64,000 nt of DNA from Scenedesmus sp. ARA3 (Eukaryota; Chlorophyta; Chlorophyceae; Sphaeropleales; Scenedesmaceae), in the NCBI GenBank assembly GCA_004335835.1, contig RWJK01001724.1, positions 1 to 64,000 of the forward strand, given 5' to 3'. Positions 1 through 60,669 of the stretch are shown piece by piece. Numbering within the stretch: the first letter of the stretch is position 1; each line of letters begins with the position of its first letter. The translations under genes were made by a program, and so were the position numbers. The notes beneath the pieces were generated by a model that worked only from the letters and a program-made list of their open reading frames with translations, was not told the DNA's origin and made no database searches.

Positions 1-1556
1 CGCCAACCGCACATTCAAACAACCAAAAAAACCTCGCACCTCTGCTGTGGCTGCCTCACACAGCGCTGCCACCTTCTCCTTGTCCAGCCCAATCACGCTG
101 ACCATGCCGCCAGCCACACAATATATCAAGCAACTGACAAACAACTTGTCAGTAACACGGCTATGCAGCCCGCACCTCGGCCGTAGCTGCCTCGCACAGT
201 GCGGCCACCTTCTCCTTGTCCAGCCCAATCACGCTGACCATGCCGCTGCGCGCGGCATCAGCAGCGGCCTGCATGCTCTCGCCGCGCAGCTTCACCAGCT
301 TCAGCCCGTCCTCAAATGACATGGCGCCTGGCAGCAGCAGCAACGCACGCAGGTGAGAAGGTACACCACGACAATGGCGTGTGCTATGCTTGAGGCGGTA
401 CAATGTGTTGCATGCTATGCAATGTAAGGAGAGGTGGCTTGTGCCGACTCTGCAGCTGTGGCATGCCCAGGGGCAGCTGGCGCGTGGCAGGGGCACACTG
501 CACACACACAGTCAACATAGCCTGTTACAGGCACCACAGAACAGCAGCAAATGGCTAGAACTGGCCGCAGGACAGCAGCACACTGCATTACGCGCACCGA
601 AGGGCACTGCAAGCTCAGCAGCGCCTACAGCCTCTACAGCTTTCCATCAGCAGACAAGCACCAAGCCCAGCCCAGCATTCCGCCTGATCTGAACGTGCAA
701 ACTGAGCCTGATCTGCCGCACAACCGTGTCAGCGCACCTGCGAAGGCCACTGCAGTGTACTCTTCCAGGCTGAACGCCGCAGCGCATCCACAACGTCCAC
801 CAGAACAAGCCCACACCACCAACACGCCTATGTTGTTACAAATCTACTGGCCCCACCTGCGAAGGCCAGTGCGGTGTACTCTCCCAGGCTGAGCCCAGCA
901 GCCACGTCCACGCTGTCCAGCAGTGCCTGGCCCTCCGTGGCACGCAGCTTCTCGACAGCAGCAAGGCTGGCCACGTAGATGGCAGGCTGCAAATGAAAGA
1001 AATGACAGGTGTAAAAAGATAAGCACGGCACTGTTATATGATGTCCAGACATGCTGGTCAACAGGGGGCGGTGGGTTCAGCGCGTGCAGCAGCTGGCCCA
1101 GCTGAAGCAGGCGCGGTGCGGCTGGAGCAGCGAGGACGCAAGTGGTTCGAAGGGACGACTGTGTGTGCGTCCTGCGCAGAGTGCTGCAGAACAATTGCTG
1201 GGCAAAGAAAGCAGCGCCTACACCTAGCTTATGCACAGCATCTTCACTGCCGCCAGGCTGGCCATGTAAGTGGCCGGCTGCTGGGAGCAGGGGTGCGATT
1301 GCTGGGGCCCAAAACATGCAAGACAGCAGGGGCCTGTAGTGTCAATGACTGCAAGTAGCAGGGGAAGTCAGTGCTGCTGCGGTCTACCTTCAAGCCATAG
1401 CTGCTGCTGCTACTGCTGCTGCTGCTGTTCTAGTTGCATTTTGTGTTTACTGTCACCGCTGTTGCTGCCCTTAGTGCAGTTTGCTGCTGCTGTTGTTGCT
1501 GACCTGGCTGACTGCTGTGGTGTCCAGCTTCTCCTTGGGGCCCTCCACACACACCT

Positions 1557-1592
<36 letters not shown>

Positions 1593-2324
1593 GCGGCGGC
1601 AGCAGCAAGACACACATGGTCAGGGTTCACACAGCCGCAGGGCAACGCTTGGCGGCAGCAGATGACAACGCGCGGCAGGGCAGGCGTGCTGCATTGGCAG
1701 CTGCAGCAGCCCCACATGAGCTGACCCAAGTTGTTGCAGCATGTCTAAGCATGAGCATCAAGGCATATATCATCAGGAGCACACTCATCACAGACAGCGG
1801 TGTCAGCAAGGCATGATTGGCATTGCCACAGCCGCACCTTCAGTAGGTCATAGCCAAGGATGTCTGCTGCGAGTAGACTATCTATAATACAAGTTTGCGA
1901 GTAGAATACCTATCCTACAGCTTTGCGAGTAGACTATTTGTCTTACAGGTTTTTGATTTGGCTACCTATCATACAGCTTATGAGGTCAACCTGTTGCAGG
2001 CAGCTACAGGATTAGCACCAGCCGCACCTTGAGCAGGTCATAGCCCAAGATGTCTGCCGCCTTGTCAAACAGCTCCTTGGCTGCGGGGCACTCCGCAACC
2101 AGGTCCTGCAAGGGAAGCACAGCACACAGCATGACTGGACGTATGATGCACGGCCAAAAGGTGCAGTGTGGGAGCGCAAGTTGCAGAGTATGGGAACTTG
2201 CTGAGAGGCCAAGTAGCTGATGCACTGTTGAGTTGCGCAGTGGCTGCCGCGCGCTTCAGACAACTTGCGCACAAGCTGCCAGCACAATCGTGTACATATG
2301 CATTCAAGTGTTAGGCCGGTTAAT

Positions 2325-2357
<33 letters not shown>

Positions 2358-4022: not shown

Positions 4023-4119
<97 letters not shown>

Positions 4120-7071: not shown

Positions 7072-7112
<41 letters not shown>

Positions 7113-7578: not shown

Positions 7579-7619
<41 letters not shown>

Positions 7620-8414
7620 TGCTGCTGTGCCAGGAGATGGGCTTCGGCGGCCAGCAGCCAGCTGCAGTGTGCAGGCCGTCACTGGACGCTGCAAGCTTCC
7701 AGGGCGGCTTGATGCATGAGGTGCCTGCAATGCCAGTGCCGACAACACTGCAGCAGCAGCAGCAGCGGCAGCAGCAGCAGCTGGTGATGTTTGGCTTGGA
7801 TGCCGCCAGGGTGCCAGGCAGTCCTCTGCCAGGCCTGATGCTGCCAGACATGCAGAGCAGCAACCAGCAGCTGCAGCAGCAGCAGCAGATGTGCATGCCG
7901 CTCGGTGCGGCAATGGTGGGCTGCGATGCCCAGCTGCCAGGCAATGCTTCACCACTGGCCCAGGTGCGGCACCAGCTGCTGCTCTCCCTGCTTGCATTCC
8001 TTTTTCATTCTTTCTGGTGTCAGACCATGGGATCGTGATGCTGTGGCTCATACTGGCTCAAATGGTGCGGGGATCCACGTGCTCTCCCTGCTTGCATTGC
8101 AGCCGCCATCGGGGCATCACCCGGGGGGTTTGTAGTTGAGCTGATGCGGCTGTTGATACCCAGCTTGCCATGAGACTTGGCCGCCCCTGTTTGACACCAG
8201 CGCTTCGCCTCATGACAAGCACACATCTCAGCGCAAACGTATCATGAACATGCTGAGGTGGCTGTTTCGACGAATTTGCATGCAGGCACCCGCCGACCTT
8301 GGCGTTGCAGCAGCACAGAGCAAGCTGCAGCAGCTGCTGCTCGACAGCAAGCTGGTCTCACAGTGGCAGCAGAACATCCAGCAGGAGCTGCTGCAGCTGC
8401 TGCCGATGCCCTGA
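6329..8414 (+). CDS. Gln/Pro-rich low-complexity protein 1 (possible transcriptional regulator)
   Basis: I do not recognise a family. Exon 1 (6329-7963, 545 codons) joins in phase 0 to exon 2 (8286-8414) to give about 587 residues. Features in order: an acidic/Ser N-terminus, a long Pro run (about residues 98-114), Ala runs, the hydrophobic motif CSMTLIVPNW (about 184-193), and at least six poly-Gln tracts separated by hydrophobic LLLP/LMLP patches. The last exon encodes an amphipathic Leu/Gln helix ending LLQLLPMP. The start is the first ATG of a long open frame. The composition resembles activation or condensate-forming domains, but no DNA-binding domain is visible. It shares composition and a short motif with the Q-rich protein at 53.9-55.8 kb. 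The second exon is inferred from splice phase. Confidence 0.72.
8050..8100 (+). repeat. Echo of Q-rich 1 exon 1 donor region
   Basis: It repeats ACTGGC..GGTGCGG and the intronic GCTCTCCCTGCTTGCATT (7981-7998 and 8081-8098) at an offset of about 100 bases. Confidence 0.75.
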
Positions 8415-13536: not shown

Positions 13537-14331
13537 TCACGCATCTTCTTCCTCCTCTGCTACACCACCCCCCTCCTCCTCTCCCTCCTCTGCCGTACTC
13601 GCCTCCGCCGGTGGCAAATCAGGCCCAGCAGTGGCATCCCCAAACTTGCTGTTGCGCAGCCGCGGCCGCACCTGCCAGCCGTGCAGTACTGCCTGCCTGT
13701 ATTCCAGCAGGGTTAGCTCCTTTGCTTTTGCCTCGATCATGACATCAACCTGGCCTTCTAGACCGTACAGGTTGACGGGGCCGTCGATGTACTCTGTAGA
13801 GCAATCGGTTAGTGGCAGAGCAGCACACGACATGTTGGTTTGTGATGGTGCTGTGCCATGTGACAATCATGACGCCAACCTGGCCTTCCAGGCCGTACAG
13901 GTTGACGGGGCCGTCGATGTACTCTGTGTTGCAATTTACGGAGGGAGTGGGAAGACAGTAGAGGGTGTGTGAAGGTCTGCTGTGCCATGTGAAGGGAGAC
14001 ATGGCAAGCGACATGGATGAGGCAAGAACTGGTGTCAGCAGCCATCTGCAAAGATTTCAAGGCAACACATGCCTGGCCTTGACATCTGATAACTGATAAC
14101 ACACAGGTGCAATTATGGTCCAAGCTACTGCGGGCACACACAACGCCAACATGCTCCACACGTCTATGCACAGCTGCACACTGCTCACTGCTGCACACTG
14201 CTGACTACTGCGGCTGCTGCAATGCACAGCCTCTCACCGGAATGTGCGCTGCGCCGCTTGGCGGGGTCCTCTGGGCACTCCGACCAGTGCACCATGGGCC
14301 GCACACCTGGTGGCCACGTGGCCACAGCAGA

Positions 14332-16178: not shown

Positions 16179-16766
16179 CGATAGCGCTTGACGACCGACA
16201 GCAGCATACAGTAGCTGGCTTGACAGCAATGCACACAAGACAACCCATCCAGAACAGGCCATGAAAGGCTACTACTCAGTCAGGGGGCTGCCCTACCAGC
16301 AGTCCAAACAACCTGCTGCTCACAACAAAGATGAAATGGCGCCGTGCAGCCCTCACAGCCTTGACAGCAATGCCCACAAGCAAAAACCATCCAAACAGGC
16401 CCCAGGCCCCCAAAAGGTTGATCAGCATTGCACCGGCATTGTACCGGCAATGCAAGAAGCAGAAGAAACCTCCGCTGCTCACAACGAAGCTGCAGCAGCC
16501 TCACCGCCTGTATCTCCAGCCAGTCTGGCAGCTCCTCCGGCTTGTAGCTGGTCATCCAAGGCAGGATGCAGCTGGACAGCCGAAACAGCCGGATGCCGTG
16601 CGCCTCGTTCCAGCGGATGAGCGGCAGCAGATCGCTGCAGCGGCACAAGGCAACGCAGGGCAGGACGATGTTGGGGCAAGACAACACAACAAGATGAGTG
16701 CAGGCAGCTGGAAGACACACACGGTGAAAGCGCATGCTAAACAAGGCCACACACTTTCGCCACGCC

Positions 16767-36095: not shown

Positions 36096-36189
<94 letters not shown>

Positions 36190-39330: not shown

Positions 39331-41538
39331 TCACTCCTCGTCCTCCTCCTCACTGCTGAGCGCAAACTCGTCCGTGATCTGCAGCAGCAGGAGCAGCAGC
39401 AGAAGCAGCACCAGCAGCAGCAAGCAATGGGCAGCAGCGTGTGTCAGTGTGTATATGTGCATGCTGGTGCAATCAATGCTCGCTCAGGGAGAGCAAGACA
39501 AGGAGTGCCCATCATCGAAACCTGCAACAACATCATGCCTGGAAGGAGCATGCCTGCTTCACCATAAGCAGTACAGCCTGCCGCACGCCTGAACTGATGC
39601 TTGGCCACTGCTTGCAAAGCATGATGCAATGCACATGCAGTAGCAAACACGCGGCTGATCTGCAGCAACTTGACACCTTCCGTGCCGTGCCAGATGCAGC
39701 AGCTGCGGCAACACCACTCTGCCCGCCCGCCCACCCACCTGCCCGGACGCCCGCCCCCTGCCCGCCTGCCTGCCTGTTTGCCTGCCAGCCAGCCTGCCTG
39801 CCCCAGCTCACCCTGAGCCCTCCGCCACCAGCTCGATGCGCATGCACCACCACACTCACCCTGCCCGCTCACAGCAGAGTATCTACAAGCAACATGCAAC
39901 ATCCCGGTCAGCAGCAGCTCACCTTCCAGCCCTCTGCCACCAGCTCAATGCGCACCACCACACTCACCCTGCCCACTCGCCACAGAACATCTGCAATCGA
40001 GATGCAATCCTTTTGTTAAAAGCAGCTCACCCTCCAGCCCTCCGCCACCAGCTCGATGCCCACCACCGCACTCACCCTGCCCGCTCACAGCAGAGCATCC
40101 TGAGAGACCAGCATTGCTTGCAGGTGAATGGTTGTGCATTCACCATGCCTAAAACAAGCATGGCAGGCACGGGGGAATCTAAAATAACTGTCATTTTGCA
40201 TCTACAAGCAACATTAATGCCTTTGTCAGCAGCAGCTCACCTTCCAGCCTTCAGCCAGCAGCTCGATGCGCACCACCGTGACCACATCACCCTCACCCAC
40301 GCCAGCATCAGCCAGGGTGGCGTCTGGCGCCAGCAGCCGGCCCCTGGCAGCAGCAGCAGCAGCAGCAGTGGCAGGAGTCCATACCATGCCATGACCTCAT
40401 GCAGTGCCAAGTGCAAGAGGGCCAGAAGCGCCTCTGCATACACAAACAGCAGCTGTCATCATGGTATGCGGCTGCAACCTTCTTGGCTGCCAGAGGTTCT
40501 GTGGACATTGAAAACTGCAGCAGAGCCAGGAAGTTCCTGAGCTACTTTGGGATGTCAGTGCGCAGCACCAGGCAGCTGCTACAAGCTCCTGTTCACTTTC
40601 CTCAAGCTGCCGTTGCAACAGCAGCATGCAACCTCAAACGACTAATGCATTATCCAAGCGCAGCTTGCACGGCATGCAGCGCAGATGTGCCAACCTCACC
40701 ACATGGCAACCAATAGCAAGCAAGCACTGTCTTGATCTTGGCTGAGTCGGAGGTGGTGGCTCACCTGCACAGGGCCCGCTGCCAGGGCTCCTCAAACTTG
40801 TCCAGGCGCACCAGGCCATCCTCAGGCGGCCAGTTGAGCTGCGCAGCAAGCTGCAGCAGGCACGCGCGCACAGCAGGCACAAACAGCAGCTGTTTATATG
40901 CATCCGTTTACGAACATCAAGCACAACAAGTAATGGGCAGTTGAGCTGCGCAGCAAGCTGCAGCAGGCGCATGCACACACCAGGCACACACACCAAGCGC
41001 AACAGGTGAGGTGCAGGCTGGAGGGAGAGGCAGGCTTTGGGAAGAGGCAGGCCCTGTAGATGCTTGGCTGAGATGCGTACTGCTGTTCTACTGGTTGTGC
41101 GTGCTCAAACGGCAAGCTGGTGCAATATGCATTTGCAGATGCACTGAATGTGCTGCTGTCCAGACCACCAGGCATGGCAGGCTTGGCTACAATTGCCCTT
41201 CGGTCAGTCACTGACTGCAGTGCAATTACAGTGCAAGCAACACTGGCATGCAGTGTGCATTTGTACTGTTTCAATGCAAGAAACAGCAGCAGGACACCTG
41301 TTCATGTGTCAAACCAGGATGTAACATGCTGCCGGCATTTTTGAGCAGAAGCAGCAGTCCTGTGCTTGTGTGCTGGCAATGCTCCCACCGTGTCCATCAA
41401 TGCTGCCACAGTAGAGCTGCCTGCATCATCCACGTCCAATGTGACAGCCTCCAGGCATACTGTGTCAGTCTTGGTTGGTGCTTTCCAATACAAAGACCAG
41501 GTTTCACGCTGGATGCGAGGCTGAACCTTGATCTGCAT
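39331..41538 (-). CDS. Ubiquitin-fold protein A (acidic tail)
   Basis: Not a family I can name. Exons 41538-41389, 40850-40765, 40343-40241 and 39378-39331 are phase-consistent and give 128 residues. It starts MQIKVQPRIQ. A second strand and helix (EAVTLDVDDAGSSTVAALMD) follow, then PW.RALCRGRLLAPDATLAD and GVGEGDVVTVV, matching the ubiquitin order (K-helix, Q-R-L-x-x-GR-L-x-D-D-x-TL). The end is ITDEFALSSEEEDEE with no Gly-Gly, so it is probably not conjugated. It may be a scaffold or adaptor domain (inference). The third exon's donor side is echoed three times and the second exon's acceptor side once. Start at 41538 is the best ATG; an upstream in-frame ATG at 41610 exists. It is divergent from the SRPBCC gene. 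Confidence 0.72.
39720..39801 (+). repeat. GCCTGCC/GCCCGCC simple repeat
   Basis: A pyrimidine-rich simple repeat inside the last intron of ubiquitin-fold A, next to the first echo copy. Confidence 0.8.
39803..40097 (-). repeat. Three tandem echoes of ubiquitin-fold A exon 3 donor edge
   Basis: Copies at about 39803-39880, 39915-39990 and 40024-40097, spaced 102-112 bases. Each repeats the exon end (VVRIELVAEGW) and a GTGAGC-type donor of the true exon ending at 40241. The units share more with each other (through CAGCAGAG.ATC) than with the true exon. Confidence 0.9.
40938..40993 (-). repeat. Echo of the 5' edge of ubiquitin-fold A exon 2
   Basis: The first 31 bases are identical to 40831-40861, covering the acceptor and LAAQLN codons, 107 bases upstream in intron 1. 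Homology continues more weakly through the intron side. Confidence 0.92.
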
Positions 41539-41963: not shown

Positions 41964-43300
41964 ATGTTCAGCACCGTGTGCAAGATAGACACCGAACTGG
42001 TGATTCCCGCCAGCCCAGCACAAGTCTGGGCTGTGTTCGGTGATTTTGCTAATTGGGGTCAATGGAACGACTTCATGGTGCTGCCTATCACGCCCAGCAA
42101 GGTCGGAAAGCCCTGCAGGGTGCTCTTCCATCTGGACGGTGGCTGCATCAAGCGCAGCGTGCACGACCCAGAAGTAAGATACTTGCTATGAGTAAAGAAA
42201 CCGCATTCATGTGTCGCCAGCAGAATGACAACGCAGCCCTTCATCGGCAGCAGCAGATGTAGCAGTAGTATCGGGTGGACCACAGTACTGCATCTCCGAC
42301 AGTGTTGTGTTGCTGGCCAGATGGCAGCGACATGGGCGATATGCTTGCAATATATCAACGATGTACCCTGATGAATGCAGCTGGAGAGCTCAGCAGCCAA
42401 CCACCATCGCCACAGCAGCAGCACCACCAGACAGCACCAATGTTTATGCACAGGAACTGCATGTCAACTGATCTCGCTGCTGTGAAAGTCCAAACCTTTG
42501 ACCAACAGCTTGTGAAACTTGCGCCTGAATTTGCTGGCATTTTTGCTGCTGTTTCAGATCATGGTCCTTGACAAGGACAGGGAGCTGCGCTGGAAGGACT
42601 ACAGAGGCATCATATTTTCACAGTTCTTCAGGTGCGCACAGAGCGCATACTACAGCATTCAGAGCAACTAGACTTGCAGGAGCACCAAGGACACGCTGCA
42701 GCAGTCATTGTTCTGCAGAGGGAAGCTGCCATATCCTGTGGCCGCCACGCCACAGCAATCCGAGGTTTACTGCAGCTGCCCTGTGTCCTGCAAGCTGGCC
42801 AACTGCCTGCAGCATCCATCTTACTCCAGCAAAGGGATATTGAGCTGTCCCCAACATAATCACCTTTTAACACCACCTGCTGCATGCTGCACACCACGCT
42901 GCTGTACACACCCTTCCCCCCTTAACGCAGCGGCAGCCACTGGTATGTGCTGGAGCTGCTGCGCACCATTGACCCACCAAGCAGCACCTGCTGCCTGCTG
43001 TGCACCATGCCGCTGTACACGCATCCATCTTGGTTCTTTGCTTTATTTAAGAAGCCGTATAATACTGTCATTTTACATGCCCTTGTTTCCTGCAGGGGCA
43101 GCCACTGGTATGTGCTGGAGCCGCTGCCCAACGGCCACACCCGCTTTGTGCATGGTGCGGAGATGATGGGCCTGGCCATCCCTTTCCTGCAAGCCACCAT
43201 GGCTGCCACGCTCAAGGGCTACAAGCGCTTCAACCAGGCGCTGGCCGACGAGGTGGTGCACAGGAGCAGGCGGCAGACTGGGAAGCGCGCGGTGGCGTGA
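41964..43300 (+). CDS. SRPBCC (polyketide cyclase/START-like) family protein
   Basis: A hydrophobic-ligand binding helix-grip fold protein; the ligand is unknown. Exons 41964-42173, 42558-42631 and 43096-43300 are phase-consistent and give 162 residues. The N-terminal signature is VIPASPAQVWAVFGDFANWG with WNDFM. A strand with ELRWKDY and then GSHWYVLEPLPNGHTRFVH follow, and the long C-terminal helix is ATMAATLKGYKRFNQALADE, as in the family. No targeting peptide is evident. The tail is basic (HRSRRQTGKRAVA). The 5' edge of exon 3 is duplicated upstream, and the stop-codon region is duplicated in the 3' UTR. It is divergent from ubiquitin-fold A. Confidence 0.88.
42872..42966 (+). repeat. Echo of SRPBCC exon 3 acceptor edge and flanking intron
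   Basis: GGCAGCCACTGGTATGTGCT at 42933 repeats 43098 (offset 165). The intron side (ACCTGCTGC.TGCTG..CACC) repeats at 42875 and 42981. Confidence 0.9.
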
Positions 43301-45486
43301 GGCGGTTGGTGCTGGCAGGGATGCTGGCAGGGAGCAGGGATCTGCAGAGGAGTTGCATGCTGATGAGATGGCGCACAGGCGCACGCGGCAAACAGGGAAG
43401 CGCGCGGTGGCGTGAGTTGAGTTTGACTGTTGCTGGCAGGGATGCTGGTAGGGAGGAGGGGCCTGTAGGGGGCTGAGGGATGGGCGGCTAGTGAGGGGAA
43501 GGAACTCTATTCTGAGATTGCAGGGGCTGAGTGCGCGAGTGCATGAGGTGTGTTACTTTGTTAGGGACAAGCAGACATGCAGTGCTACTTTCTTCAGACG
43601 CCTGTCAGGCAGGTTGGTGTTGGGCTCTGGGGCTGGTAGGTTGCTTGGGATGCGAGTTGTTTGTTCATGACTAACACGGAATATGTACAGTTGAAGCACA
43701 CCAAACATGAGCATTGAGTGTGCGGGCTGCAAATGAGATGTGCTGACTGAAAACGATGTGTGCTGGCTGCGAATGATGGGTATATTGACGCGGCAGAACT
43801 GTGTATAGCCTTGCCACGACACTGCTCATGCAGCGTCGACAAGAATAACAGTGTTGTTGTCTATAGTGTCAGTAGCATGGCCAGCAGCACAGCTCAGCGC
43901 CTGGTGCTGCATTGGGTGCAGGCGGTTTGTTCTTGACACGCTGTGCATAGCTTATGTTGTACATGTGTCCAATTGTAGCCCCGGCAGCTCTGCTGCAGTG
44001 GCGGGTGCCATGCAATATGCCTGCGATGGTTCTCAGCCGTTGAACATATGATTTGTGAATGCTAGGTGTTGTCTGTACATGCTGCAGCCACTGTGTCTGT
44101 GCAGACACGTGTGCAGGACAATGTGCAGTGCCTTTGATGTATCTCAGCATGTCATGGGTGTATGGACCACCAACTGGCTGCGTGTGGCGGTGTTGCATTT
44201 AGAGGTGCAACATGGTCCTTGTGTGTGCTGAAACAAGCTGGTGTGAGTTAACAGAGTACAAAACGTATGGGATGGGCTGTACAGTGCTGTTTCAGTGTGG
44301 AATGCTCATGAATAAGTTACTGTGTGGTGCTATGGCAGCCATGTGCAATGGTGAAAGGCTGCTGCTTCTGCAGTTTCTTTGCAGTTCAGTGTTACTTGCT
44401 TTGTATGATGGCCGGTGGGTGCTGCTGTGTGTTCTTGAGGCAGGCTGGCGACAGTGCTGCTGTCTTGTCAGCTGATCGGCGTGTAAAGATGGACAGTCTA
44501 GCATGAAAAAGCAAAGCTCGGCCAGACGACCCCCCCCCGCCCTGAGCCTCCCGGCGCAAGTGGGCTGCCCATGTAAGCACGTCCGTCCAGCAGCAAGGCA
44601 TCATATCATCATGCGAAGTTCTCCTGTAGGCGCAGAGAAGATTACAGGGCAGGGTCGTTAGGGGTCCTATGGCGGGACCACCTGTGACCCCTGCCCCCCG
44701 TCTTCAAGTAGTCCTGGGTAGACCGTGGTGTAGGTTCCAGTCATGACAAGGTCACTCGCAGCGAAACACAGACAATCAAAAACACACCGGGCATCAGTGA
44801 AATTCCGTAATCGTTGTTGCATGTGGTCATGAGTGCACACAAGTAGTCACAGTCGGTACGTCAACGTCAGCGACGGCATGTGGATCTGTGTGCTGCCAAC
44901 CCTACATCTGGTTGGGGAGATGGCTGCGGGAGCCAGGCTGCATGGTCATGGTAATAGCTAGGGTTGTAATTACATGTGAGGAAAGCGTGAAGAGAACAGC
45001 CTGTGTGACCACGCAATCAGTACAACGCAGGTGTACATGTACAGCAGTACAACCCAAAGTGCATACCAGCTGTTGCATATGCAGCCGTTCCTTGATTCTT
45101 GAACGTTTAATATGTTCTATATCATGTTGTCTCAGGTATGTTGGACACAGATTGATCGCCATTCAGGCGCGCACTCACAAACATGCTTTGTACCGACAGG
45201 CAGCACTCTCGCAAGCACCGTCTTGATGGAAGCAACAGGCTTGGGCAGCGCTGACCAACGCAAGCTCATGCTGTATTACCGCAAGCGTTTATCTACGCCA
45301 AAACAAGGAGTCATGGGCTCTGCCGCAAGGATCGCACTGGGGGATGTCCGGCACACCCAACAATTCGTTCCCGCCGAGGGACAGCCTGGAGCCTTGCTGC
45401 TGGGTGCTTATGGTAGTGATTGTAAATGCATAGATTAATATAAGCCGACCTGTCACAGTAACAAACCGAGCAGCAACACTTCGGCC
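43301..45486. other. No gene recognised, with one compositionally distinct island
   Basis: About 2.2 kb. Around 44520-44760 the sequence loses CAG triplets and becomes rich in C and G runs (CGACCCCCCCCCGCC, GGGACCACCTGTGACCCC). I could not assign it to a known RNA or transposon. A frame at 45220-45438 has no recognisable domain. Confidence 0.45.
43374..43462 (+). repeat. Echo of the SRPBCC stop-codon region
   Basis: GGGAAGCGCGCGGTGGCGTG, including the stop, and the following GCTGGCAGGGATGCTGG repeat about 111 bases downstream in the 3' UTR. Confidence 0.92.
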
Positions 45487-47870: not shown

Positions 47871-48954
47871 TCACCACCTCTTGCTGCTCTCGTTGCCAAG
47901 CTCACCGCCAAGCTCCTCCGCCAACTCATCCAGGTCATGCAGCGCACCAGACACGCCATCAGCAGCAGCAGCACCGCCGCTGCCACCCTGGCCATAGCCA
48001 CGCTCCGATGCACTCGCCTTGCCGCTGCTGAGCGGCTCGTCCATGGCAGCAGCAGCGCGCCGAGCCATGTCCTGCAGGTCGTCATTCATGTGGCTGCGGC
48101 TGCCGCCGTTGCCGGAGCTCTTGATCTGCTGCGGGGTGCGCCCTGTGATATTTTCAATGGTCAGGTCAGCTGCCAGGTCCTCACGGCCCTGTGCATACAG
48201 CAGGTACCTGCAGCAGCAGCCAGAGAGAAGCAGAATCGTCATGGAATGCAGTCGTTTGATTGACATTTGGGTAAAGGATGCAGAATGATGCATGCAGGTC
48301 CACGCCGCTCTCCACGTACAGCATGTACCTGCAGCCACAATTACAGCAGCAGCAGCCAGAGAGAAGCAGAAGCATCAAGGAGTGCAGTCATTGACTGGCA
48401 TCTGGGTCAAGGATGCAGACTGGTGCATTCGGGTCCTGGCTGCCCTCCGCAGTGATGGCGGCGGCAGCAGCAGCAGCAGCAGCAGCTAGGTATGCAGGTA
48501 TACAGTTTGGCCATCTGGGTGAGCAATGCAGAATGCACGCAGCATGAGGCCAGTATTGTACACTGCCTCGCACACATCCACCTCCCTGCCTTCCCCTGCA
48601 CCTGCAAGGCCTACCTACTCATCAGTGCTGAGATGTGCAAACACCTTTGGTACAGCCAGAATTTCATCATTTCCAGAACTGTTAGCAGCCCGCCTGGCAG
48701 CAGCATTGTGCGCCCCACCTGATGATCAGGTGCGCTCACTATTACAATATCATGTGCAACGGCGTATAAGAAGCAACACTGACGGCATTGTACTATATAC
48801 AGCCAGACTGGCAGCAGCAGTGCGCCCCACCTGAAGAAGAACCAGGCGCTGAAGCCGAAGCCGACGAGCTTGAGTGCGGGAGGGATCAGCGGCACGCGCT
48901 CAATGGCATCCAGCACGGCATTGGCCACATACAGCACAGCCAGCGCACCTGCAG

Positions 48955-48990: not shown

Positions 48991-50014
48991 TTTCAGGCCT
49001 CCAGCCATGTGCACACACACTCAACCAGTGGGAACATAGCAGCGAGCCCTCGCGCGCAGTGGCTTCAATCAACACCTGGCACAGTGCAGTGTGTTCAACA
49101 GCTGGTATGCAGCGTTTCATTGCAGTTGTGGCGTGGGCTGCAACCTGCCAATTTCCACTGACGCAACGGCCAGGCACAGCCGAACCATAGCAGCAATGTA
49201 GCACAGGCATAGCCGCAGCGCCGTAGGCCAGCGTGGGATTGCGCTGCCCAGCGGGCCATGCCTACCCTGCTGTCCAATGATTCAACCAGTGCAGCACACA
49301 GACACAGCCGGGGCCTCACCGGCGCCGTAGGCCAGCGTGGGGTTGCGCTCCTCTGCGGGCCAGCGCTGCCAGCGCTCCACCAGGTTGTTCCAGCCATCGC
49401 GCAGGCTGGCGCTGGGGTCGTCATCATAGCCGGTGCTGTAGCCCCTGTAGTTGCTGAACCTGCAGCACAATTGCGATGCGTTAAATGTTAGTTTGAGGAA
49501 GGGTCCCGGCACTGTTTCGGATAGTATGAGCCACAACAGGATGAGCGCAGTTCGTTGGAACAGACTTGGGCAAGGTTGGGGACGCAAGCACAGCAAGCAG
49601 GAGGCATGCAGTGCAATCGTGCGTGTGATGCAAGGAGGCAGGGCTGTGCCTGCTTCAGGGTTTGGCATGCCTTGAGCCATGCACAAGCAGATGGTGCAGT
49701 AGGTCTGACATTGTGCATTGAGGCACTAAGCTGAAGCAATGTGTGGTCACATAAACACAATGCACTGCCACATGCATGCAGCAGCAACCTGGCCAGTAGC
49801 CTGATATGCATGCACACAATGCGCAGGCTGTGGTGCTGCCTCACCTGTCGGTTGTGCTGCTGGTCTGGTCCTGCCTTTCACCCTCGCGGAAGTTGACACG
49901 CACGCTGCGGCGCACAGGCACCACGCACAGGGTGTTGTTGCTAGGGCGCACTCGCACCAGGCCTGCTGCTGCTGGCCTGGTTGCACTGCTGCCAGCTACG
50001 GAGTGAACCTGCAT
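47871..50014 (-). CDS. CURT1/CAAD-domain thylakoid membrane protein
   Basis: A curvature-thylakoid-1-like protein; such proteins bend grana margins. Exons 50014-49845, 49459-49320, 48948-48831 and 48207-47871 are phase-consistent and give 254 residues. A basic, Ser/Ala-rich transit region (about 1-50) precedes the CAAD core: GWNNLVERWQRWP amphipathic helix, GALAVLYVANAVLDAI (membrane helix 1), RVPLIPPALKLVG, then FGFSAWFFFRYLLY (membrane helix 2) and GREDL. The C-terminal 90 residues are polar and Gly/Ser-rich with an acidic LDELAEELGGELG, unlike short plant CURT1. Whether it is CURT1 proper or another CAAD protein is open. Three of its exon edges are echoed in the introns. Confidence 0.86.
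48309..48430 (-). repeat. Echo of CURT1-like exon 4 acceptor edge and intron
   Basis: The block at 48196-48297 (TACAGCAGGTACCTGCAG, then CAGCCAGAGAGAAGCAGAA) recurs 121-136 bases upstream on the transcript. It still reads RYMLYVES against RYLLYAQG. A partial third copy lies at 48508-48540. Confidence 0.9.
48694..48726 (-). repeat. Echo of CURT1-like exon 3 donor edge
   Basis: CTGGCAGCAGCA..TGCGCCCC followed by ACCTGA repeats the exon 3 donor region at an offset of about 114 bases in intron 3. Confidence 0.82.
48958..48990 (+). repeat. CAG array before CURT1-like exon 3
   Basis: About 11 units; CTG on the transcript strand, just upstream of the acceptor at 48948. Confidence 0.9.
49218..49258 (-). 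repeat. Echo of CURT1-like exon 2 donor edge
   Basis: GCGCCGTAGGCCAGCGTGGG and following bases recur 104 bases into intron 2. Nine codons align with two differences, both silent. The GT donor itself has been lost in the copy. Confidence 0.9.
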
Positions 50015-51329
50015 GGTTGTGTTGCTGTTTGAAAGGTTAAGTGCAAGCTTCTTATAAACGAAAGATTGTGTGTACGATTCGTGGCTTGTGGAGCCAGCAG
50101 GTGGTGCTTTGTATGGGCAGCAGGCCAGCTGACTTGTCATCTTGGAGCAGGGTGAAGCACCCCCGGGTCATTCGTTGGACCTTTGGATATGCTGCTGCGG
50201 TTTCCGAACAGAAGTAAGGCCAAAATATTATTTCCTGACAAACGTTTGCCGTGCGGCGTGTTGTGCGCACCCTCTACTGCATGCAAGATGATTGACGTCA
50301 TCAGGCTCGCCAAGGTGCCGTAGAGCTGCGCTCCCTAAGCAAGCACCCGTGTAGTTTCCACGAGTATTATAAAAACGACTGTCTTTGTTTGAAAGGAGTT
50401 GGACGTCGTCAGGGGTATATCCCCGCCCTCATGGCCGTGACAGGGTGTCACGGCAGTACAGCGCAGCAGTACAGTCTTCCCCCTGCAAATCAAGCAGCCG
50501 CGATGATAAGGCCAAGAAACCAGAATAAAAGGGTACCCACGAGTGTATTACCGGCTTCTGATAAGTGATGCACCAACAATGCAGCTGAGGCTGCAGTATG
50601 AGAGGTGCTGCCAGCTGGCCTTGACTCAAGGTACGGTACGCAGCACTGCTGTGTCCTGGTTCAAAACCTGGGACCCAAGCATGGTACACGGTGCGTGCCT
50701 GCATACACCTGTCCTGCAAAAAAGAGGCTATGCAGCACGCACACAACACGATACACCCTTCACAATAGTACTGGCTGTAGTAGTGAAGTACAGCAGCAGC
50801 CTGGTAGCACTCACCGGCTGCCTCGTCAGTCAGCCAAACTTTTGCAACGGAGTTGGGCCAGCATTCAAGCAACAGTAGGCATGCTGCATGCAAAGCCCCT
50901 CGCTCCAGGCCCAAAAACCTGCCTGATCACTTCTGAAGAGCAAAAAATGGTCTCCACAGCAGCAACGCGGCTTACCGGTGTGCCTGACTGTGTTGCTGAT
51001 TGCATGCACATGCACTGCCGCACATGTGCAGGCAGCTGCAGAGCTTCCAGCCCTGCTAGCAGCGCTGTCGCAAGCAAGATACACTTCCGCCGAATTCAGC
51101 CTCAAAACAGATACTGCAAACCCCCGCACATGCAGCTTGCTTTGTGGCTGCAATGACACACGACAATGTGCACAAGCTGTTGCTCAAGGCACTGCAGCTG
51201 ACATATCACAATGCAATAGTAGGAGCAGCACGATACAACAGCGGGTGCCGTCAGCACTGTGTGTGGCCATTACCGTGGGAACTCAAAATTTCCCTTTGCC
51301 GCCTTCCTTTCCCATCATGGCATGCCACC

Positions 51330-51950
51330 ATTCAACGGCTCTGTGACATTGTGTCAAGGCAGGCACAAGACAGCAGCAGCTCAACAAGGGTACCCTCGCC
51401 TTGGAGGTATGCACCACGTGCCGCATGTGCTGAAGTTATGCCACGCATGTGTATATGCGCTGGTATGCACCATGCTTCACAACGCATGCACAGACAACTG
51501 CATGGTGCTAGGCTCGCTGTCAAGCAGTAAGGCAGAGCGTCACAGAATGTGAGCCTTGCCTTTTCTGCTCAAAAGTGTGCTGCCACAACCAGGGCGATAA
51601 GACAGCATTCAACCTTCACCCACTCCTGAAACCAGCAAACAGATAATGACGCTCGCCGTGCATGCCACTGCTCTGCGTCCGTGCGTCCTAAATTACACAC
51701 GATAATGCACATGCGGATACTCAATCGCTGACATACCACTATACAACTGCTCTGTCATGCTGAGGCAGCAAGTGCCATGCAGGCGCAAAACAGTTGCAAC
51801 TCAGCATGGTGCCCTCAACATGGAGGTAAGCACCATGCGCCGCATGTGCTGCAGCTGCCAGCCCAGTGGGCAGCGCAATTACAGGTGCGCCAATATGCAG
51901 AACGCACCACAAACCATGCACATACAAATGCATGATGCCTGTTCTTGCTC
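51330..51950 (+). repeat. Diverged direct repeats, about 400-bp spacing
   Basis: Both units contain GGCAC/GGCGCAA-A-ACAG, GTGCCCTC-like, TGGAGGTA.GCACCA and GCCGCATGTGCTG in the same order. Confidence 0.6.
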
Positions 51951-52237
51951 GCTTTCAGGCAGCCAGATAGGGCCCCACAGAACGCCAGCATTGCATGTCT
52001 CTGAAGAGGCATACCATTGCAAGTACAACGGAAACAGACAACGATTGTTCGACGCTGACTGCTAAGGACCAGGGAACAGATACAGCCATTCACACGCATG
52101 CATGTTGCTATGCGGCCCAAATGGCACACAAGTGTGCTGCAGCAGATGCTCAACTGCCGCCACATCAGATACAGCAGCTCTGTCATGCGTGGCAGCACTC
52201 GCCAGCCACAAACAGCAGCTGCTCAGGAAGAAGTAGT

Positions 52238-52277
52238 ACTTGCAGGAAATGCAGCCATGCAGCCATTTCCTGCAAGT
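52238..52277. repeat. Perfect inverted repeat, 14-bp arms, 12-base loop
   Basis: The arms ACTTGCAGGAAATG and CATTTCCTGCAAGT flank CAGCCATGCAGC. It could form a hairpin if transcribed. Confidence 0.92.
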
Positions 52278-53943
52278 GTGCACTGCATGCCGTGCACGCG
52301 ACCTTTCCAGGCTGCCACACACACACAACAGCCGTGTCGCCAAACCAACAAGGGCGAGCGTAACAAAAGATTGAACAAGCACAAGCAACTGCCAGCCTCA
52401 AGTCAAAGCTGCAGAAGCACGGACAACAACCAAACCTGTCCATTAGGGACTATGAACTAGCAGTTTTGTAAGAGAGGCAATCAACTGCAGCTGCCCTGTC
52501 CTCAGCAGGGCACCGCTGCAAAACGGTCAAAACCCCATAAAAAAACCCACCGGAACCCCAGCAGCAAACAGACATGTGATGCACCGCACACGCACATCCT
52601 TCTGCTGCACAATCTTACATGCAATGCGTCCTGGTTCCATCCGCATGCATACGATGGATCCAGTGCCCTTCAGTCGCAGCTGCCCCCGCTTTCCTGCAAG
52701 CAAGCTGCCACAGCAATCGGCGTGCATCCAGGGAAGTGGCATGCCTCCGTGTGTGTCAGCAATACAACCAACCAGCCCCCATCGTACACACTCTACGCAA
52801 ACAACCCACATGTCACCGTACCACGACTTCTGACAAACCGTAGACAGCACTCTTCTAGCTTGGCAGCACGCCAGCCTAATAGCAGCACACGCACGAGCTG
52901 TGAACTGCTTCAAATGCAGCTGCATCAACACAACGTGCACAGCTCCTGGTGGGCTGAGAGCTCCCGCAGTGAGACCTTTGAAGGAACGCATGTAAAGAGA
53001 TGCATTAATCCATGAAGTTAGACCATCAGTCTGCTATCAGGAAACCTTGGTTGGCCACAATTGCAACCCATGACATGCTGACTCACCAGCACCTTCAAAC
53101 TTCACTCCGAAAGAAGGAAGCAGCTCCCCAACTGCTTCCATTTTACAGCACAACACCCCGTGCTATTTCCATGCTGAGCACAAGTGCTGATTCTCCTGCC
53201 CTGATGCATCAGCCTAAGTAACGAGTGCTGCAAGCACAGCACACATCTCCCATACTTTGCTACTTTGCAATGGATATGTATACCATCAAGGTTCCCCCAG
53301 TTGCTGTCCACCACTGTCGGAACACGCACCAGGCACAGTTGCACCCACGCCCCACCACTAAGAAACTCATTCCACCCAAATACCATAGACCACCGCATCA
53401 TTACACGCCAAAGCATGCCATGCAGGCACACACTGTAATGATGTGGCTCAAGTTGCAGACAGCTGCTGCAAAAGCCACACCCTACCCACCCCTCCCATCA
53501 AGCGCAGCAGACAGCCTGCCAGCTGTGAGAGCAAGCAGAGCTCCAGCGGCTGGTAAAACAGCGCTACGTGCCCCTGCTTTTACAACCCCTTTCTGCCCAC
53601 ACGGCACCGCTGCAGCTGACAAAGCACTGCAGCCACTCCAACATGCCAAGCACACAGCAACTACACAAGCAACACCGTATCTGTGTGATGCTGCCATTCA
53701 CAATGCAATGTGCTGCTGGCTCAGAGGCATGCAGGATGGGGCTCACAGCCACTCGGCCACACCTCTGCCAAACCATGCATCCAGGCCGATAATCGGCACA
53801 AACTCTGCTACACAGCACCCCCCCCCCAAGACCCACCATGTACCACCTAACCCCAGCTGCAACGTGTTTCCAAACCACACCAATGATTCCCCGGCCAACA
53901 GCCAATCTACCAGGTGAACAGCGCCATGAGCCGCATGCTGTGT

Positions 53944-55169
53944 TCACAGGGGCAGCAGCTGTAGCCAGCCCTCACATGTCTGCACCCTCACGCCTCCGCC
54001 TGCGTGTTGCAGGCCCTGCTGCTGCACTGGCGCTGCTGCCATCCCTGCCGGCGGAACTGCTGCTGCTGCTGCCGTGTACGTTTGCATGGATACCTGAGCG
54101 GCTGAGGAAGCAGGCGAGCAGCAGACCATGCCACTGCTTAAGCTGCTGCTGGCTGCTGCGATGCTGCTGTACTGCTGCGGTGCAGCAGCGTACAGATCAG
54201 CTGCAACACTGCTGTACTGCTGAGGTACAGCAGCATGGCTGCTGTAGTTCTGAGCTGCATCGTTGCTGCTGCTGTATTGCAGGCCAACAGGCTGCTGCTG
54301 CAGAGGGCTTGAATGAGCAGCAACACCTGTGTAGAAGGCGTCTGTGCTGAGGTTGGCTGTGGGTGCTGCTGCTGCCTGCAGCTGTGTCAATCCACCCATT
54401 CGCTGCCTGAGCTGCAGCAGCCTCACAATCTCTGCATCCACGGCCGTTGCTGCCGCTGCGTTGTCGTTGGCGGCAGGTTGCTGCTGCTGGAGCTGCCGCT
54501 GCTGCAGCTGCTGCAGCTGCAACAGCAGCTCTTGACGCTGTTGCATGTCGCTGCTGCTGCTGCTGCCTGGTGATGCATACGTGGTACCGGCACCTGCTGA
54601 CAATGCCTCAGGCTGCAGCAGCAGCTGCTACTGCTGCAGCTGGTGTGCGGCGAACCCGCCAGCTTGCACTAGGCTGATTTGCGCAGCGCTGCTGCCTGCA
54701 AGTGTCGTGCCAGGCAGCACCGTCTGCCAGCTGCCTGCACTGCTGTCGAGGTTGCTGCTGTGGCGCTGTTGCAGCTGCAGCTGCTGCTGCGTCTGCAGTG
54801 GCAGCGAGCCCAGCTCCATGCTGCTGCAGCAGCTGCTGCCATCAAATCCAGCAATGGCAAGTGGTTGGGTACCATGTGCAACTACTGCATGCATTGGGGC
54901 TGGCTGCAAGGCAGGCCTAGGGCTCAGTAGGCCCTGTGCTGCAGCAGCGCTGTCAGTCGAGGGCTGCACCTGCATGTGGCGAGGCGCTGCCCCTGGCTGC
55001 GATGTCATCTGCTGAGCCAGCTGTGATGTCATCTGCTGCAGCAGCTGCAGCTGCTGCTGCTGGTGCTGTCGCTGATGATGGTCAAGCTGCGGAGGGCTTG
55101 CATTCGGCATCCAAGCAGCAGTAGGCTCAACGCCTTGCTGAGGTGCACTGCAAGGTTGCGTGGAGAACA

Positions 55170-55200
<31 letters not shown>

Positions 55201-57197: not shown

Positions 57198-58367
57198 ATG
57201 GCAGCTGAAGCAACCTCGATACAACAGCCATCAGCAGCAGCAGAATCTGCAGCAGCATTACAACCGGGAGCACCCGAGAAGCTGGGAGCCGGCCTTCTGC
57301 TGTGGTGAGGGCCTGTGATTTTTGAGCAGGGCCGGAGGGCCGGAGGGCACACGTCAATCACCATGCAGCTGCCATACCCCTGAGACCATCCTGCTGCATC
57401 AATGCAGCTGCTCATGCACTTACCAAAACCTGCTAGCGTTGTGTCTGGCGAACACTGTGCCCCTGCACTGCTCAGTACTGCTCACAGCTGCACATGCTAT
57501 GCACGCCATGGCAGTAAACATCAACCAGCGCTGCGCGTGAGTGCTGCTGCAGCTGCCAGGGCCAGGTGCTGCTGCTGAAGCGCAGCAGCAAGCACAACGA
57601 CCAGACCTGGGGCCTGCCGGGCGGCAACGCTGAGTCAGCAGACCAAGGACTGTTGGCCACAGCGCAGCGGGAGGCACATGAGGAGCTTGGAGCAGTGCCT
57701 GCGTATGTAACGCGGGCACAGATTTTGACCAAGTGAGTGCATCAGAAGCAATGTAGTGCTTGCAGGACAGCATGTGCAGACAAATAGTATAGCAGCGGAG
57801 TGCACAAAAGCAGATGTGTGCACGTGTCAGGGCAGCCTGGGAGCTGACCATGCTAGAGTTGTGGCGTCTGTGCAGCTGCTGTCGGGTATGGGGCGGGTCC
57901 AGTGTTGCAAAGCTTGAGAAAATGATTGCTGCATAAACTGAAGGCGTGTAAGCTGCACTATGCTGTCAGAAAAGGGTGCACATGATGGACAATAGGTATA
58001 AGTTGCGCAGCGCTTTCTGTAGTTGGAGCATGCAGCATAAGCGCGCCTTGCCTGCTGCCTGCTGCTGCTGCTGTTGGTGCTGCTGCTGCCCCTGCTGCTG
58101 CTATGCAGGCGCGGCAAGCGCAACCAGAAGCACTTCACCGTGTTTGTGGCAGACGTGCAGCCCAGTGCAGCGCAGCAGTATGTTCCCCGCCTCAATGCAG
58201 AGCACAGCGAGTGGCGCTGGGTACCCTGGGAGCAGGTTGTGGCAGCTGGCAGCGGCGCAGCAAATGAAAACCAGTTGCAGCTGCACCCTGTAGTGCGCCA
58301 GCTGGCACAGCAGCATGCACTCGAGGTGCAGCATGTGCTGCAGGCATGTCAGCAGCCAGAAGGATGA
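57198..58367 (+). CDS. Nudix hydrolase
   Basis: Hydrolyses nucleoside diphosphates linked to another moiety; the substrate is not determinable. Exons 57198-57304, 57553-57732 and 58109-58367 are phase-consistent and give 181 residues. The N-terminus is Ala/Gln-rich without a clear signal. The domain begins LGAGLLLCCQGQVLLLKRSS, then TWGLPGGN. The Nudix helix is GGNAESADQGLLATAQREAH followed by EELGAV: the REXXEEXG core is intact, but the spacing to the first acidic residue is one longer than GX5EX7REUXEEXGU, and that residue is Asp. Later strands HFTVFVADV and WRWVPWEQV and the terminal LHPVVRQL are typical. The last intron ends in a CTG run. Confidence 0.88.
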
Positions 58368-60669
58368 CCCCTTTTTCATTGCGGCACAGCAGCACGCATA
58401 CGTTGTGTGAGGAATCACACAACTGCTGACAGCCTGGAGCTGTTTGTGCTGGTTTGCTGCTGTGGCAGCTGGCACAGCAACATGCATGTCAGCAGATGCT
58501 GCTGGCAAGCAGCCGCTGTTGCAGCACCACCCGTCTGCAAGCCAGAATGTCCGGCTCAGCATACGAGCTGCTTCGGCAGCAGTACACAGCATCCGATGGC
58601 GCTGGAAGCAACACGAGGCAGCCGACAGCACGAAGCCTGCGGAAGGGAATGGGCTCTTGAACACAAATCTTGGACACAACACAGCGCCTCATCATTGGAT
58701 CACCAATCAAGCCATAGCAACAACGCCAATGGCCCTGCGCCAAATTGGAGCGGCAATCACAGCTGATGCATCCTGCAGCTGACCCATGTGCTTGGACACT
58801 ACCCGCCTGTAGTGAGGCAGCAGGCACAGCAGCAGCAGCTGGCTACAGCGGCATGCTTGTATGTGCAGATGAGTATGCACGCCACTGCCGGCACCGAGCA
58901 GCACACCAGCTTGCAGTGGGGCACTGGCCTCAGAGCTGCATCAGCCCTGCAAGCAGCAGCAGCCGCTTGATCACAGAGCTTTGCTGTGAGCTGGCGCCAG
59001 CTAGCCATGTGAGTACGCATAATCTTGCATTATGCTTCACTGCAAATTCTTTCACTGCAACTCATAACAGCTGGCGCGAGCTGGACTGCCTCTGCAACAC
59101 AAGCAACTGCATGTGCAGAGTGTGCTGGTGCGCTGCGTATGCAGGCCTGCTGCAGCCCAGCCATGCAGCGGCCGCAGGGCTTGTGTTGTGTGCCAGCACA
59201 GCATGCTGCATGCGCATCTGGCGCCTGCTTTCCAGCGGCTCGGCCATGGTGGCTTTGTGTAAGAAGCAGGTGTACATGACGCAATGCTGCAGTGGTCGAA
59301 ACTGCAATGCTTGCATGAGGGGGGCCAGCACTGGCAAGGCTGCCAGCCAAGTGACTTGCTGCACGTGTGTGTCCACAGACCAGATGCATTTGGGAGCCTG
59401 CAAGCGAGAAAGCGCATCTGTGGATTGTGACGCTGATGAGTGTGCTGCAGTGCTACAGTTGAGCGTTGGAGTCTGACTCAAGTCGCAAGCCAGTGTCGGT
59501 ACAGTGCTTCATAGAACATCAGATTGTTGCTGCAGGCTTTTGCACGCTACTACTGGAGGCAACTGCCAGTATCTTGGAATTTCAACTGCTGAGCTGACTA
59601 TAATGCCCTTGAGACAGCTGCATGACCAACCGGAATCCATTGCTGTCAACATGGAGTTTGCAAACTGCACTTGCAGAGTTGCTGTGAGAATCAATGTCAC
59701 TTTTCTTGGCCTGTGGTGGCATCAATCGCTATCCGCCGTTTTCAGTGTCCACTTTTCTCTGCAATGCTCTAGCAGGATCTTAGCCGCTTTTTTATCAGAC
59801 CAATACTCACATCAACCTCATACTTGAGTGCTCAGCAAATGGAACGGAGCGTTACACTCCTGCTGTCTCACAGCGCACTGCTGAAAAGACAAAGAACTGG
59901 CTGCTCAACTGCTACAGCTGACGATGGTGGACAACCCATCTGTAAAGCATACCAGACTGGCAGGCCAGCATGATAGCACGGCCCTGAAAAGCCACACATG
60001 CACGGCTCTCCATACAATACACCTAACCCTGTGGACAGGCCGGCTGCAGTGGCTGCAGCATCGCGTGTCAGCCAAACCTGACAGCTCGCCGCTGCTCACT
60101 GCTGCGGTGTGGTTGCTGCTGTGGCATAGTCGCTGGCACATCCACCGGGAGGGTGAGGTGCCAAGACACTGCCAACCGCTGCACCAAGACAGAAGCAGGG
60201 AGCCCTTGCAGCCGTTGGTGCAGCACTACCAAACCGAAAACTGCTGCGGTGGCGCGCGAGGCTCCTGCTGATACATAGCACGCGCTGACGCCTCGGCTGC
60301 TACACGCGGCTAGAGGTCATCTGCGCATCCCAGCAACGTTGTTGCATCACATGAGGATGGCAAGAGAGCATTTACCTGCACAAAGAGCAGCAGCAAAGGC
60401 GCAACACATGTCAGTGATTGAGTCAGGACCGCCCGAACGCTACTGTTAAGGACTAGCAGCAAGAAAGCGAAAGCAGCAAGGCTGCCAACATGCTGGTGTC
60501 CGGAGGGAGCAATTGCGCTGTTGTCCTGAATGTGCAGTCCTCACTGCCTTGTACACAAATCATCCCAAACAAGACGACACCCGTTTTACCGCCCAGTTCA
60601 ACACAGTGCAGTCGCCTGCAGCCCCCAAACCCAGCCACTGCTCCAAGCTTTCATAAGACACATTCTCAC
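58368..60669. other. No gene recognised (3' regions of Nudix and PsaF)
   Basis: About 2.3 kb between convergent genes. A 243-codon Cys-rich frame at 58745-59476 has no domain and was not called. Confidence 0.5.
58463..58840 (+). repeat. Two echoes of the Nudix C-terminal coding region in the 3' region
   Basis: AGCTGGCACAGCA.CATGCA with CATGTCAGCAG at about 58465, and CCTGTAGTG.GGCAGC with GGCACAGCAGCA at about 58806, resemble 58286-58360 of the last exon. Confidence 0.65.

What the first reader, a model, noticed from the sequence alone, without database searches (positions are those of the whole stretch)
1..58840. Echo exons: junction-spanning tandem copies of exon edges inside the adjoining introns of many genes
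At least ten exon edges in six genes (MCAT, Q-rich 1, UVDE, ubiquitin-fold A, SRPBCC, CURT1-like) recur as diverged copies about 100-290 bases away. Geometry is constant: donor-side copies lie downstream of their exon, acceptor-side copies upstream. Most keep a usable splice dinucleotide. Two more genes show the same at their stop-codon region. Each copy must come from a tandem duplication spanning an exon-intron junction. This could be a general way this genome lengthens introns and makes decoy splice sites; I do not know a description of it at this density.
Basis: seen in the sequence. Interest (0 to 1): 0.9.

Follow-up and report, generated by a model that had tools for sequence, protein, structure and literature searches.

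The report
Exon-edge copies from local tandem duplication
In this green-alga-like genome about one in ten predicted exon ends has a worn copy of itself inside the neighbouring intron, best explained by ordinary short tandem DNA duplications that happen to cross the exon border and make introns longer, without clear sign that the copies are kept as working decoys.

Summary
In 256.6 kb (window plus 20 other stretches of the same genome) 35 of 368 predicted splice edges have a diverged copy, the best one 76-422 bases away in the adjoining intron. Shuffled sequence gives 0 local repeats against 153.

The copies come from direct local tandem duplications (27 of 77 clusters at offsets of 100-139). 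They are not clearly aimed at exon edges: if units fall at random and coding damage is removed, 51-58% of detected genic ones should cross a junction; 31 of 49 (63%) do (P=0.15 against 55%). They decay neutrally: mismatches fall 57/53/108 on codon positions 1/2/3, as for a free copy plus an exon changing only at third positions. Splice dinucleotides survive at the neutral rate (29 of 35), and using the echo would frameshift or stop the protein in 32 of 35. Introns with echoes are longer (median 514 against 330), partly because long introns have more room.

One residue is unexplained: 11 of 35 copies match their exon at 95% or more beside nearly unrelated intron sequence. Exon-biased gene conversion is my leading idea. 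Gene models are predicted; no RNA data or second assembly was available.

The parts
175..298 (-). MCAT exon whose donor edge is copied; donor GT at 173-174 (the exon probably runs on to about 322)
   Evidence: HMM exon 161-298, ends adjusted by eye; 16 viewed relatives of 88 hits run C.AAT.EV into the same GAG|GT
35..110 (-). echo of the MCAT donor edge (92% over 76 bases, offset 136)
857..986 (-). MCAT exon; both its donor (857) and acceptor (986) edges are copied
735..803 (-). echo of donor edge 857 (81%, offset 119)
1210..1281 (-). echo of acceptor edge 986 (69%, offset 291)
2028..2105 (-). MCAT exon with copied donor edge
1829..1870 (-). echo of donor edge 2028 (88%, offset 190)
1868..1979 (+). 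28/56-bp tandem array inside the same MCAT intron (not an exon edge)
7980..8098 (+). Q-rich 1: weak donor-edge echo (19 identical bases, offset 100)
13537..13793 (-). last UVDE exon as predicted; acceptor edge 13793
   Evidence: Pfam UvdE on the neighbouring upstream exons
13866..13992 (-). UVDE acceptor echo; near-complete 130-bp tandem unit (exon part 93%, intron part 67% identical)
16219..16401 (+). UVDE intron-only repeat, two copies of about 42 bp, offset 141
39793..40309 (-). ubiquitin-fold A: array with three echoes of donor edge 40241 (offsets 210, 318, 429)
42927..42965 (+). SRPBCC acceptor echo of exon 43096 (92%, offset 165)
42871..43020 (+). intron-side partner of the same SRPBCC duplication (39 bp twice, offset 111): one unit held intron plus exon edge, and a 54-bp indel came later
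43244..43471 (+). SRPBCC stop-codon region duplicated (80%, offset 115); the HMM called a GC donor here, counted among the 35 edges
48174..48448 (-). CURT1-like acceptor echo and intron repeat (offsets 121 and 136)
48686..48837 (-). CURT1-like donor echo, mostly intron side (offset 114)
49218..49362 (-). CURT1-like donor echo, splice GT lost in the copy (offset 104)

Best explanation
Short direct tandem duplications (offsets mostly 80-250 bp, peak 100-139) occur throughout the sampled genome. Those that land inside an intron, or cross one exon border, leave the mRNA unchanged because splicing can still use the outer, original site, so they are tolerated; those inside coding exons mostly are not. 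With exons of about 170 bp and introns of about 340 bp, more than half of tolerated genic duplications must cross a junction. The spare exon edge then lies in the intron, decays neutrally, and the intron is one unit longer. Further duplications, deletions and small indels break up the intron-side homology. Shown: direct orientation, collinearity, junction share, neutral codon pattern, splice-dinucleotide survival, longer introns. Inferred: that the outer site is the one spliced, that duplications are fixed neutrally, and the DNA-level mechanism (slippage, flap or break repair), which I could not determine.
For: Offsets peak at 100-140 bp and none lie at 2-5 kb; 27 of 77 clusters at 100-139, median 133. 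153 direct local pairs against 0 in shuffles and 12 inverted, 11 of them palindromes. Simulated random units: 783 of 1386 tolerated ones cross a junction; 51-58% after detection; observed 31 of 49, P=0.15 against 0.55. Mismatches by codon position 57/53/108 over 35 best pairs: third-position share 0.50, P=0.95 against one half; 55/51/103 without two doubtful GC-donor edges. In the 17 pairs with alignable intron side, exon divergence 0.125 and intron 0.192; copy divergence at codon positions 1 and 2 is about 0.099, equal to half the intron value. Splice dinucleotide kept in 29 of 35 (27 GT/AG, 2 GC), neutral expectation about 0.82. Echo introns longer. Weak intron similarity still found in 7 of 16 pairs whose block stops at the junction.
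Against: In 16 of 35 best pairs the homology stops within 14 bases of the splice junction; neutral simulations with all ages give 13-25%, and 30-39% only with large indels and young duplications removed. 11 of 35 exon parts are 95% or more identical while their intron side averages 0.66 identity (random level 0.56); simulation gives 0.86-0.90, or 0.65-0.71 if young duplications are missing, but then only 9-10% of pairs should be that well matched (P=4e-4 against 10%). Pairs of 90% or more identity are commoner among edge clusters (10 of 33, two gene-end cases included) than intron or intergenic ones (2 of 31), P=0.02 (counted, tested). 14 of 15 pairs of 90% or more identity cover under 0.6 of their offset, unlike simple simulated duplications (4-22%). 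Edge share would be significant against the 32-40% of the set-aside simulation.
Confidence: 0.76

Rival explanations
1. Echoes are functional: exon-edge decoys are kept by selection, for example to slow or divert splicing to unproductive isoforms.
For: Exon part plus splice consensus often stays similar where the intron side does not; 29 of 35 copies keep a splice dinucleotide; 32 of 35 would give frameshift or stop if used, as poison sites would; my gene-finder labels several echoes as exons.
Against: No codon-level constraint; dinucleotide retention equals the neutral value; where the intron side aligns, the copy evolves at the intron rate.
Confidence: 0.08
2. Exon-biased concerted evolution: gene conversion, or repair templated on the conserved exon, keeps refreshing the exon part of an old duplication while the intron parts drift away.
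For: Patchy identity: exon 0/44 and 1/52 mismatches next to intron divergence 0.23 and 0.20 in L025; 11 of 35 exon parts at 95% or more beside nearly unrelated intron; copies in one three-copy array share derived letters (L027 alignments, by eye).
Against: Three of 17 pairs show the reverse (exon more diverged than intron: L010 4155, L026 6052, W 43284). Conversion should also homogenise introns. Missing young duplications may create part of the pattern.
Confidence: 0.12
3. Assembly or haplotype artefact: two alleles joined head to tail.
For: The MCAT intron is broken between contigs in the repeat; MCAT copies 35/171 differ at six sites, all third codon positions (by eye); four fetched loci hold short N runs, gaps or withheld bases.
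Against: No second allele of three window stretches (1-2500, 30000-31000, 42600-43140) in the assembly, CAG-tract hits aside; pooled divergence is graded and neutral over 35 edges; duplications also lie in intron interiors and between genes.
Confidence: 0.03
4. Insertion of introner-like or other mobile elements with long target-site duplications.
For: A dispersed SINE-like repeat (40 matches scored, the window's own included, of 162 candidates; a 14-bp flanking repeat in L039) sits in two echo-bearing introns (window 40106-40155 and the end of C460).
Against: Dispersed repeats cover 0 to 5.1% of each locus; the SRPBCC echo intron has no other match in the genome; intervening sequence is often the homologous intron itself.
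Confidence: 0.03

Closest known systems
Tandem genomic (internal gene) duplication, Rogers 1989; Gao and Lynch 2009; Hellsten et al. 2011 (known here through passages of PMC4974935 and PMC3443670; the Gao and Lynch paper was not held)
   Same: Direct, adjacent duplication inside genes, providing extra GT/AG sites; the potato RdRp case also duplicated an intron-exon structure and had a separate 83-bp duplication within an intron (passages).
   Different: Those papers treat creation of new introns. Here an existing intron is lengthened and, as far as predicted, the mRNA is unchanged; density is about 1 in 10 predicted splice edges.
Intronic minisatellites / local tandem repeats
   Same: Some introns are arrays of three or more units of about 90-210 bp (ubiquitin-fold A, C460 MCAT, L026 6052).
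   Different: Many are two diverged copies with broken homology, not homogeneous arrays.
Duplicated (mutually exclusive) exons
   Same: Copy of coding sequence with splice site in the intron.
   Different: Copies hold one exon edge and part of an exon, and show no pooled coding constraint.
Introners / intron-generating transposons (PMC9860276, passages)
   Same: Mass intron change, reported mainly in rapidly evolving lineages such as green algae (passage).
   Different: No dispersed family shared between the copies.

Membership tests
Internal tandem duplication in genes | direct orientation and short range | tested here: met
   153 direct local pairs against 12 inverted, of which 11 are self-palindromes; none at 2-5 kb
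Internal tandem duplication in genes | copies adjacent, homology about as long as the offset | tested here: inconclusive
   median block/offset 1.0-1.06 for pairs under 85% identity but 0.31-0.51 for better-matched pairs
Tandem-duplication intron gain (Rogers model) | AGGT-bearing exon segment duplicated and a new intron formed between the copies | not tested
   No ancestral gene structure was available
Introner | introns or insertions similar to many others in the genome | tested here: not met
   SRPBCC echo intron matches only itself; dispersed coverage 0 to 5.1% per locus; other echo introns not searched genome-wide one by one, except the MCAT and ubiquitin-fold ones
Mutually exclusive duplicated exons | whole exon with both splice sites and coding constraint | tested here: not met
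   one edge and part of an exon in the alignments; third-position share 0.50, equal to neutral-copy expectation
Functional decoy splice sites | copies kept above the neutral rate | tested here: inconclusive
   dinucleotides 29 of 35 = neutral; but exon parts outlast intron flanks in about a third of pairs
Functional decoy splice sites | used in transcripts | not testable with these tools
   no RNA data

The most novel reading that the evidence does not exclude
Exon sequence acts as a template that keeps its own intronic echo young: after a junction-crossing duplication, exon-limited gene conversion (or transcript-templated repair) refreshes the exon edge and splice consensus while the intron flank drifts. 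That would give this alga a standing reservoir of near-perfect second splice sites at up to one in ten exon edges, and a ratchet that lengthens introns.
Probability: 0.12. Interest if true: 0.75.

Novelty: new member of a known kind. Interest (0 to 1): 0.42.

Why it matters
Introns of Chlamydomonas relatives are unusually long and lack the usual 60-110 bp peak; the paper PMC8226300 (passages) says whatever mechanism drives intron length there is likely evolutionarily ancient and the advantage of long introns unknown. A high rate of 100-140 bp tandem duplications, tolerated because splicing ignores spare exon edges, is a simple candidate that can be counted in any assembly. Practically, echoes look like exons to gene finders (my own HMM called several as exons) and can coincide with contig breaks, as at the MCAT locus. 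Whether the density is unusual among eukaryotes could not be tested here: I had no other eukaryotic genome.

Tried and rejected
Rejected: chance or low complexity (2- and 3-base repeats masked; shuffled control gave 0 pairs). CAG tracts as breakpoints: cluster ends lie near such tracts less often than random (0.09 against 0.17, sd 0.04). Haplotype join. Mobile element with long target-site duplication. Coding constraint on the copies: six of six third-position differences in the MCAT 35/171 pair suggested it, but the pooled count did not. My first enrichment test (31 observed against 9.7) was rejected as unfair, because it moved homology blocks rather than whole duplicated units. A simulation with secondary tandem duplications (edge share 32-40%, homology stopping at the junction in 10-23%) was set aside because fresh secondary duplications dominated its detections.

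Led nowhere: one search failed on an import; one search was an empty script that names a system path in a branch that never runs and opens nothing; Gao and Lynch 2009 is not held. Literature searches (search listings, plus passages only of PMC4974935, PMC3443670, PMC9860276, PMC8226300 and PMC5966456) listed no paper whose title or abstract start describes junction-crossing echoes in algae; that is limited to this library, these words and the listed rows.

Rows dropped: of 153 pairs, 77 clusters were kept for counting; best pair per edge (35 of 51, score >=24) for the main statistics; core exons had to be >=50 bp with log-odds >=12 nats (204 exons). MCAT 35/171 was not counted as an edge because the HMM ended that exon 14 bases late; CURT1-like 48174/48295 and 48686/48800 and Q-rich 1 also did not enter the 35. 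Two of the 35 are doubtful GC donors (W 43284, really the SRPBCC stop region, and L029 6723); leaving them out changes nothing.
Full report
WHAT WAS TESTED. The window is bases 1-64000 of a 119,168-base contig (C1320) of an 87.3 Mb, 1567-contig genome. The gene set is that of a photosynthetic eukaryote; green alga is my inference. I fetched 20 more stretches (192.6 kb) and pooled them with the window (256,567 bp).

THE OBSERVATION. In the pooled sequence, masked for 2- and 3-base repeats, local direct repeats peak at offsets of 100-140 bp and none lie at 2-5 kb. 153 pairs with offset 40-600 and score >=26 stand against 0 in shuffled sequence and against 12 inverted hits, 11 of them palindromes.

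GENE MODELS. No annotation was available, so I trained a two-strand HMM by iteration, starting from long open frames and from a splice consensus (AG|GTGCG, TGCAG|G) that I had read off the window by eye. It therefore did not discover that consensus, although it refined it. Its proteins match Pfam, but it makes small false exons and calls some echoes as exons. For the MCAT exon, the 16 relatives I viewed (of 88 hits) run into the same C.AAT.E|V donor, which supports the exon end in the window as the true one. I used 204 confident exons with 368 splice edges.

HOW COMMON. 35 of 368 edges (9.5%; 19 donors, 16 acceptors) have at least one copy, 51 edge-copy pairs in all, the best copies 76-422 bases away. 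Two of the 35 are doubtful GC donors. No cluster lies on the wrong side (0 of 77; expected 2.8). Four pairs looked like exon-interior copies in non-coding sequence, one of them the MCAT edge missed by 14 bases. Of 77 clusters, 31 cross a splice edge, 2 a gene end, 18 are intron-only, 13 intergenic, 11 exon-exon, 2 other.

IS THE EDGE TARGETED? That test is unfair: a duplicated unit is longer than what survives of it. Placing whole units of the observed offsets at random in these gene structures, and allowing only those that leave the coding sequence intact, 783 of 1386 cross a junction. After simulated decay and detection by the same pipeline the share is 51-58%. Observed: 31 of 49, 63%; P=0.15 against 55%, 0.057 against 51%, 0.28 against 58%. 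One further simulation, with secondary duplications, gave 32-40% and was set aside for the reason given in Tried and rejected. Intron-only density (18 clusters in 98.7 kb of intron state) is like the intergenic density (13 in 89.9 kb).

DO THE COPIES WORK? In 35 best pairs mismatches fall 57, 53 and 108 on codon positions 1, 2, 3. A free copy plus an exon that changes only at third positions predicts one half at third positions; the share is 0.50 (P=0.95; P=8e-7 against one third). In 17 pairs with an alignable intron side, exon divergence is 0.125 and intron 0.192; the copy's own rate (positions 1 and 2: 56 mismatches in 853 exon bases, 0.099 on two thirds of the sites) equals half the intron value (0.096). 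Splice dinucleotides survive in 29 of 35 (27 GT/AG, 2 GC), the neutral value at that divergence. Using the echo would cause a frameshift or stop in 32 of 35 cases. These are the marks of decay, not of maintained decoys.

INTRON LENGTH. Introns with an echo: 25, median 514; without: 114, median 329.5; P=9e-4. With any local duplication: 31, median 558; without: 108, median 324. A long intron has more room for a copy, so part of this is expected. In the MCAT intron at the end of contig C460, copies of the same donor edge follow each other at 210 and 140 bp, and both contigs end inside this array; the last C460 copy and the first window copy overlap in sequence at 90% identity, so they may be one piece or two.

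WHAT DOES NOT FIT. In 16 of 35 best pairs homology stops within 14 bases of the junction although the exon side is well matched; neutral simulations of all ages give 13-25%, rising to 30-39% with large indels and no young duplications. Seven of these 16 still hold weak intron similarity (P<=0.02 on 60 shuffles), so at least those were probably fuller duplications. But 11 of 35 exon parts are 95% or more identical with intron sides at 0.66 (random level about 0.56), where simulation gives 0.86-0.90, or, with young duplications absent, the right intron value but only 9-10% of pairs that well matched (P=4e-4 against 10%). Young full-length duplications are nearly absent (1 of 15 pairs of 90% or more identity covers its offset). 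Short N runs in four fetched loci (gaps or withheld bases, I cannot tell which) and a contig break in a tandem array make it possible that the assembler collapsed near-identical repeats, but that does not obviously explain exon-limited identity. Exon-limited gene conversion is the leading idea; selection on the copies is the next. Three of 17 pairs show the reverse asymmetry, which favours patchy conversion over selection.

KNOWN OR NEW. Tandem genomic duplication inside genes, and its role in making introns, is established (passages of PMC4974935 and PMC3443670; Gao and Lynch 2009 recalled and cited there, not held). What I did not find in the searches listed is a description of junction-crossing copies at this density in an alga, or their link with intron length. 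The open question of what sets intron length in Chlamydomonas relatives is stated in PMC8226300 (passages); Tetradesmus obliquus, a possible relative by GC content (57% there, about 56% here), has mean introns of 462 bp (PMC5966456 passage). The species of this genome was not identified.

LIMITS. Gene models are predicted; about 0.3% of the genome was examined; stretches were taken from long contigs and from contigs named in earlier searches, not at random; no RNA, no second assembly, no other eukaryote for comparison; simulations use simple substitution and indel models.

Noticed in passing
window 40106-40155; L031-L049: A dispersed SINE-like repeat (about 130 bp by eye, 3' end TGTCATATTAC, often truncated at the 5' side), 40 matches scored of 162 candidates; one copy (L039) has a 14-bp flanking direct repeat.
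   Followed up: partly
window 1-250 and L010 (contig C460, last 430 bases): The MCAT gene appears split over two contigs whose ends lie in the same tandem array, so C460 and C1320 are probably neighbours.
   Followed up: partly
window 10374-10671: Three-copy array of a 98-101 bp unit in a stretch predicted intergenic.
   Followed up: no
window 51318-52204: Old direct repeat of about 410-420 bp offset, next to a stretch with strong strand skew (GC skew -0.23 in 52001-54000).
   Followed up: no
whole window: Many CAG/CTG tracts (up to about 32 units at 4025 and 31 at 36096), some predicted to code for long Ala or Gln runs; duplication ends are not enriched near them.
   Followed up: partly
L019 3730-5775; L021 4183-7702: Exon-exon repeat clusters, i.e. 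duplications apparently tolerated within repetitive coding sequence.
   Followed up: no
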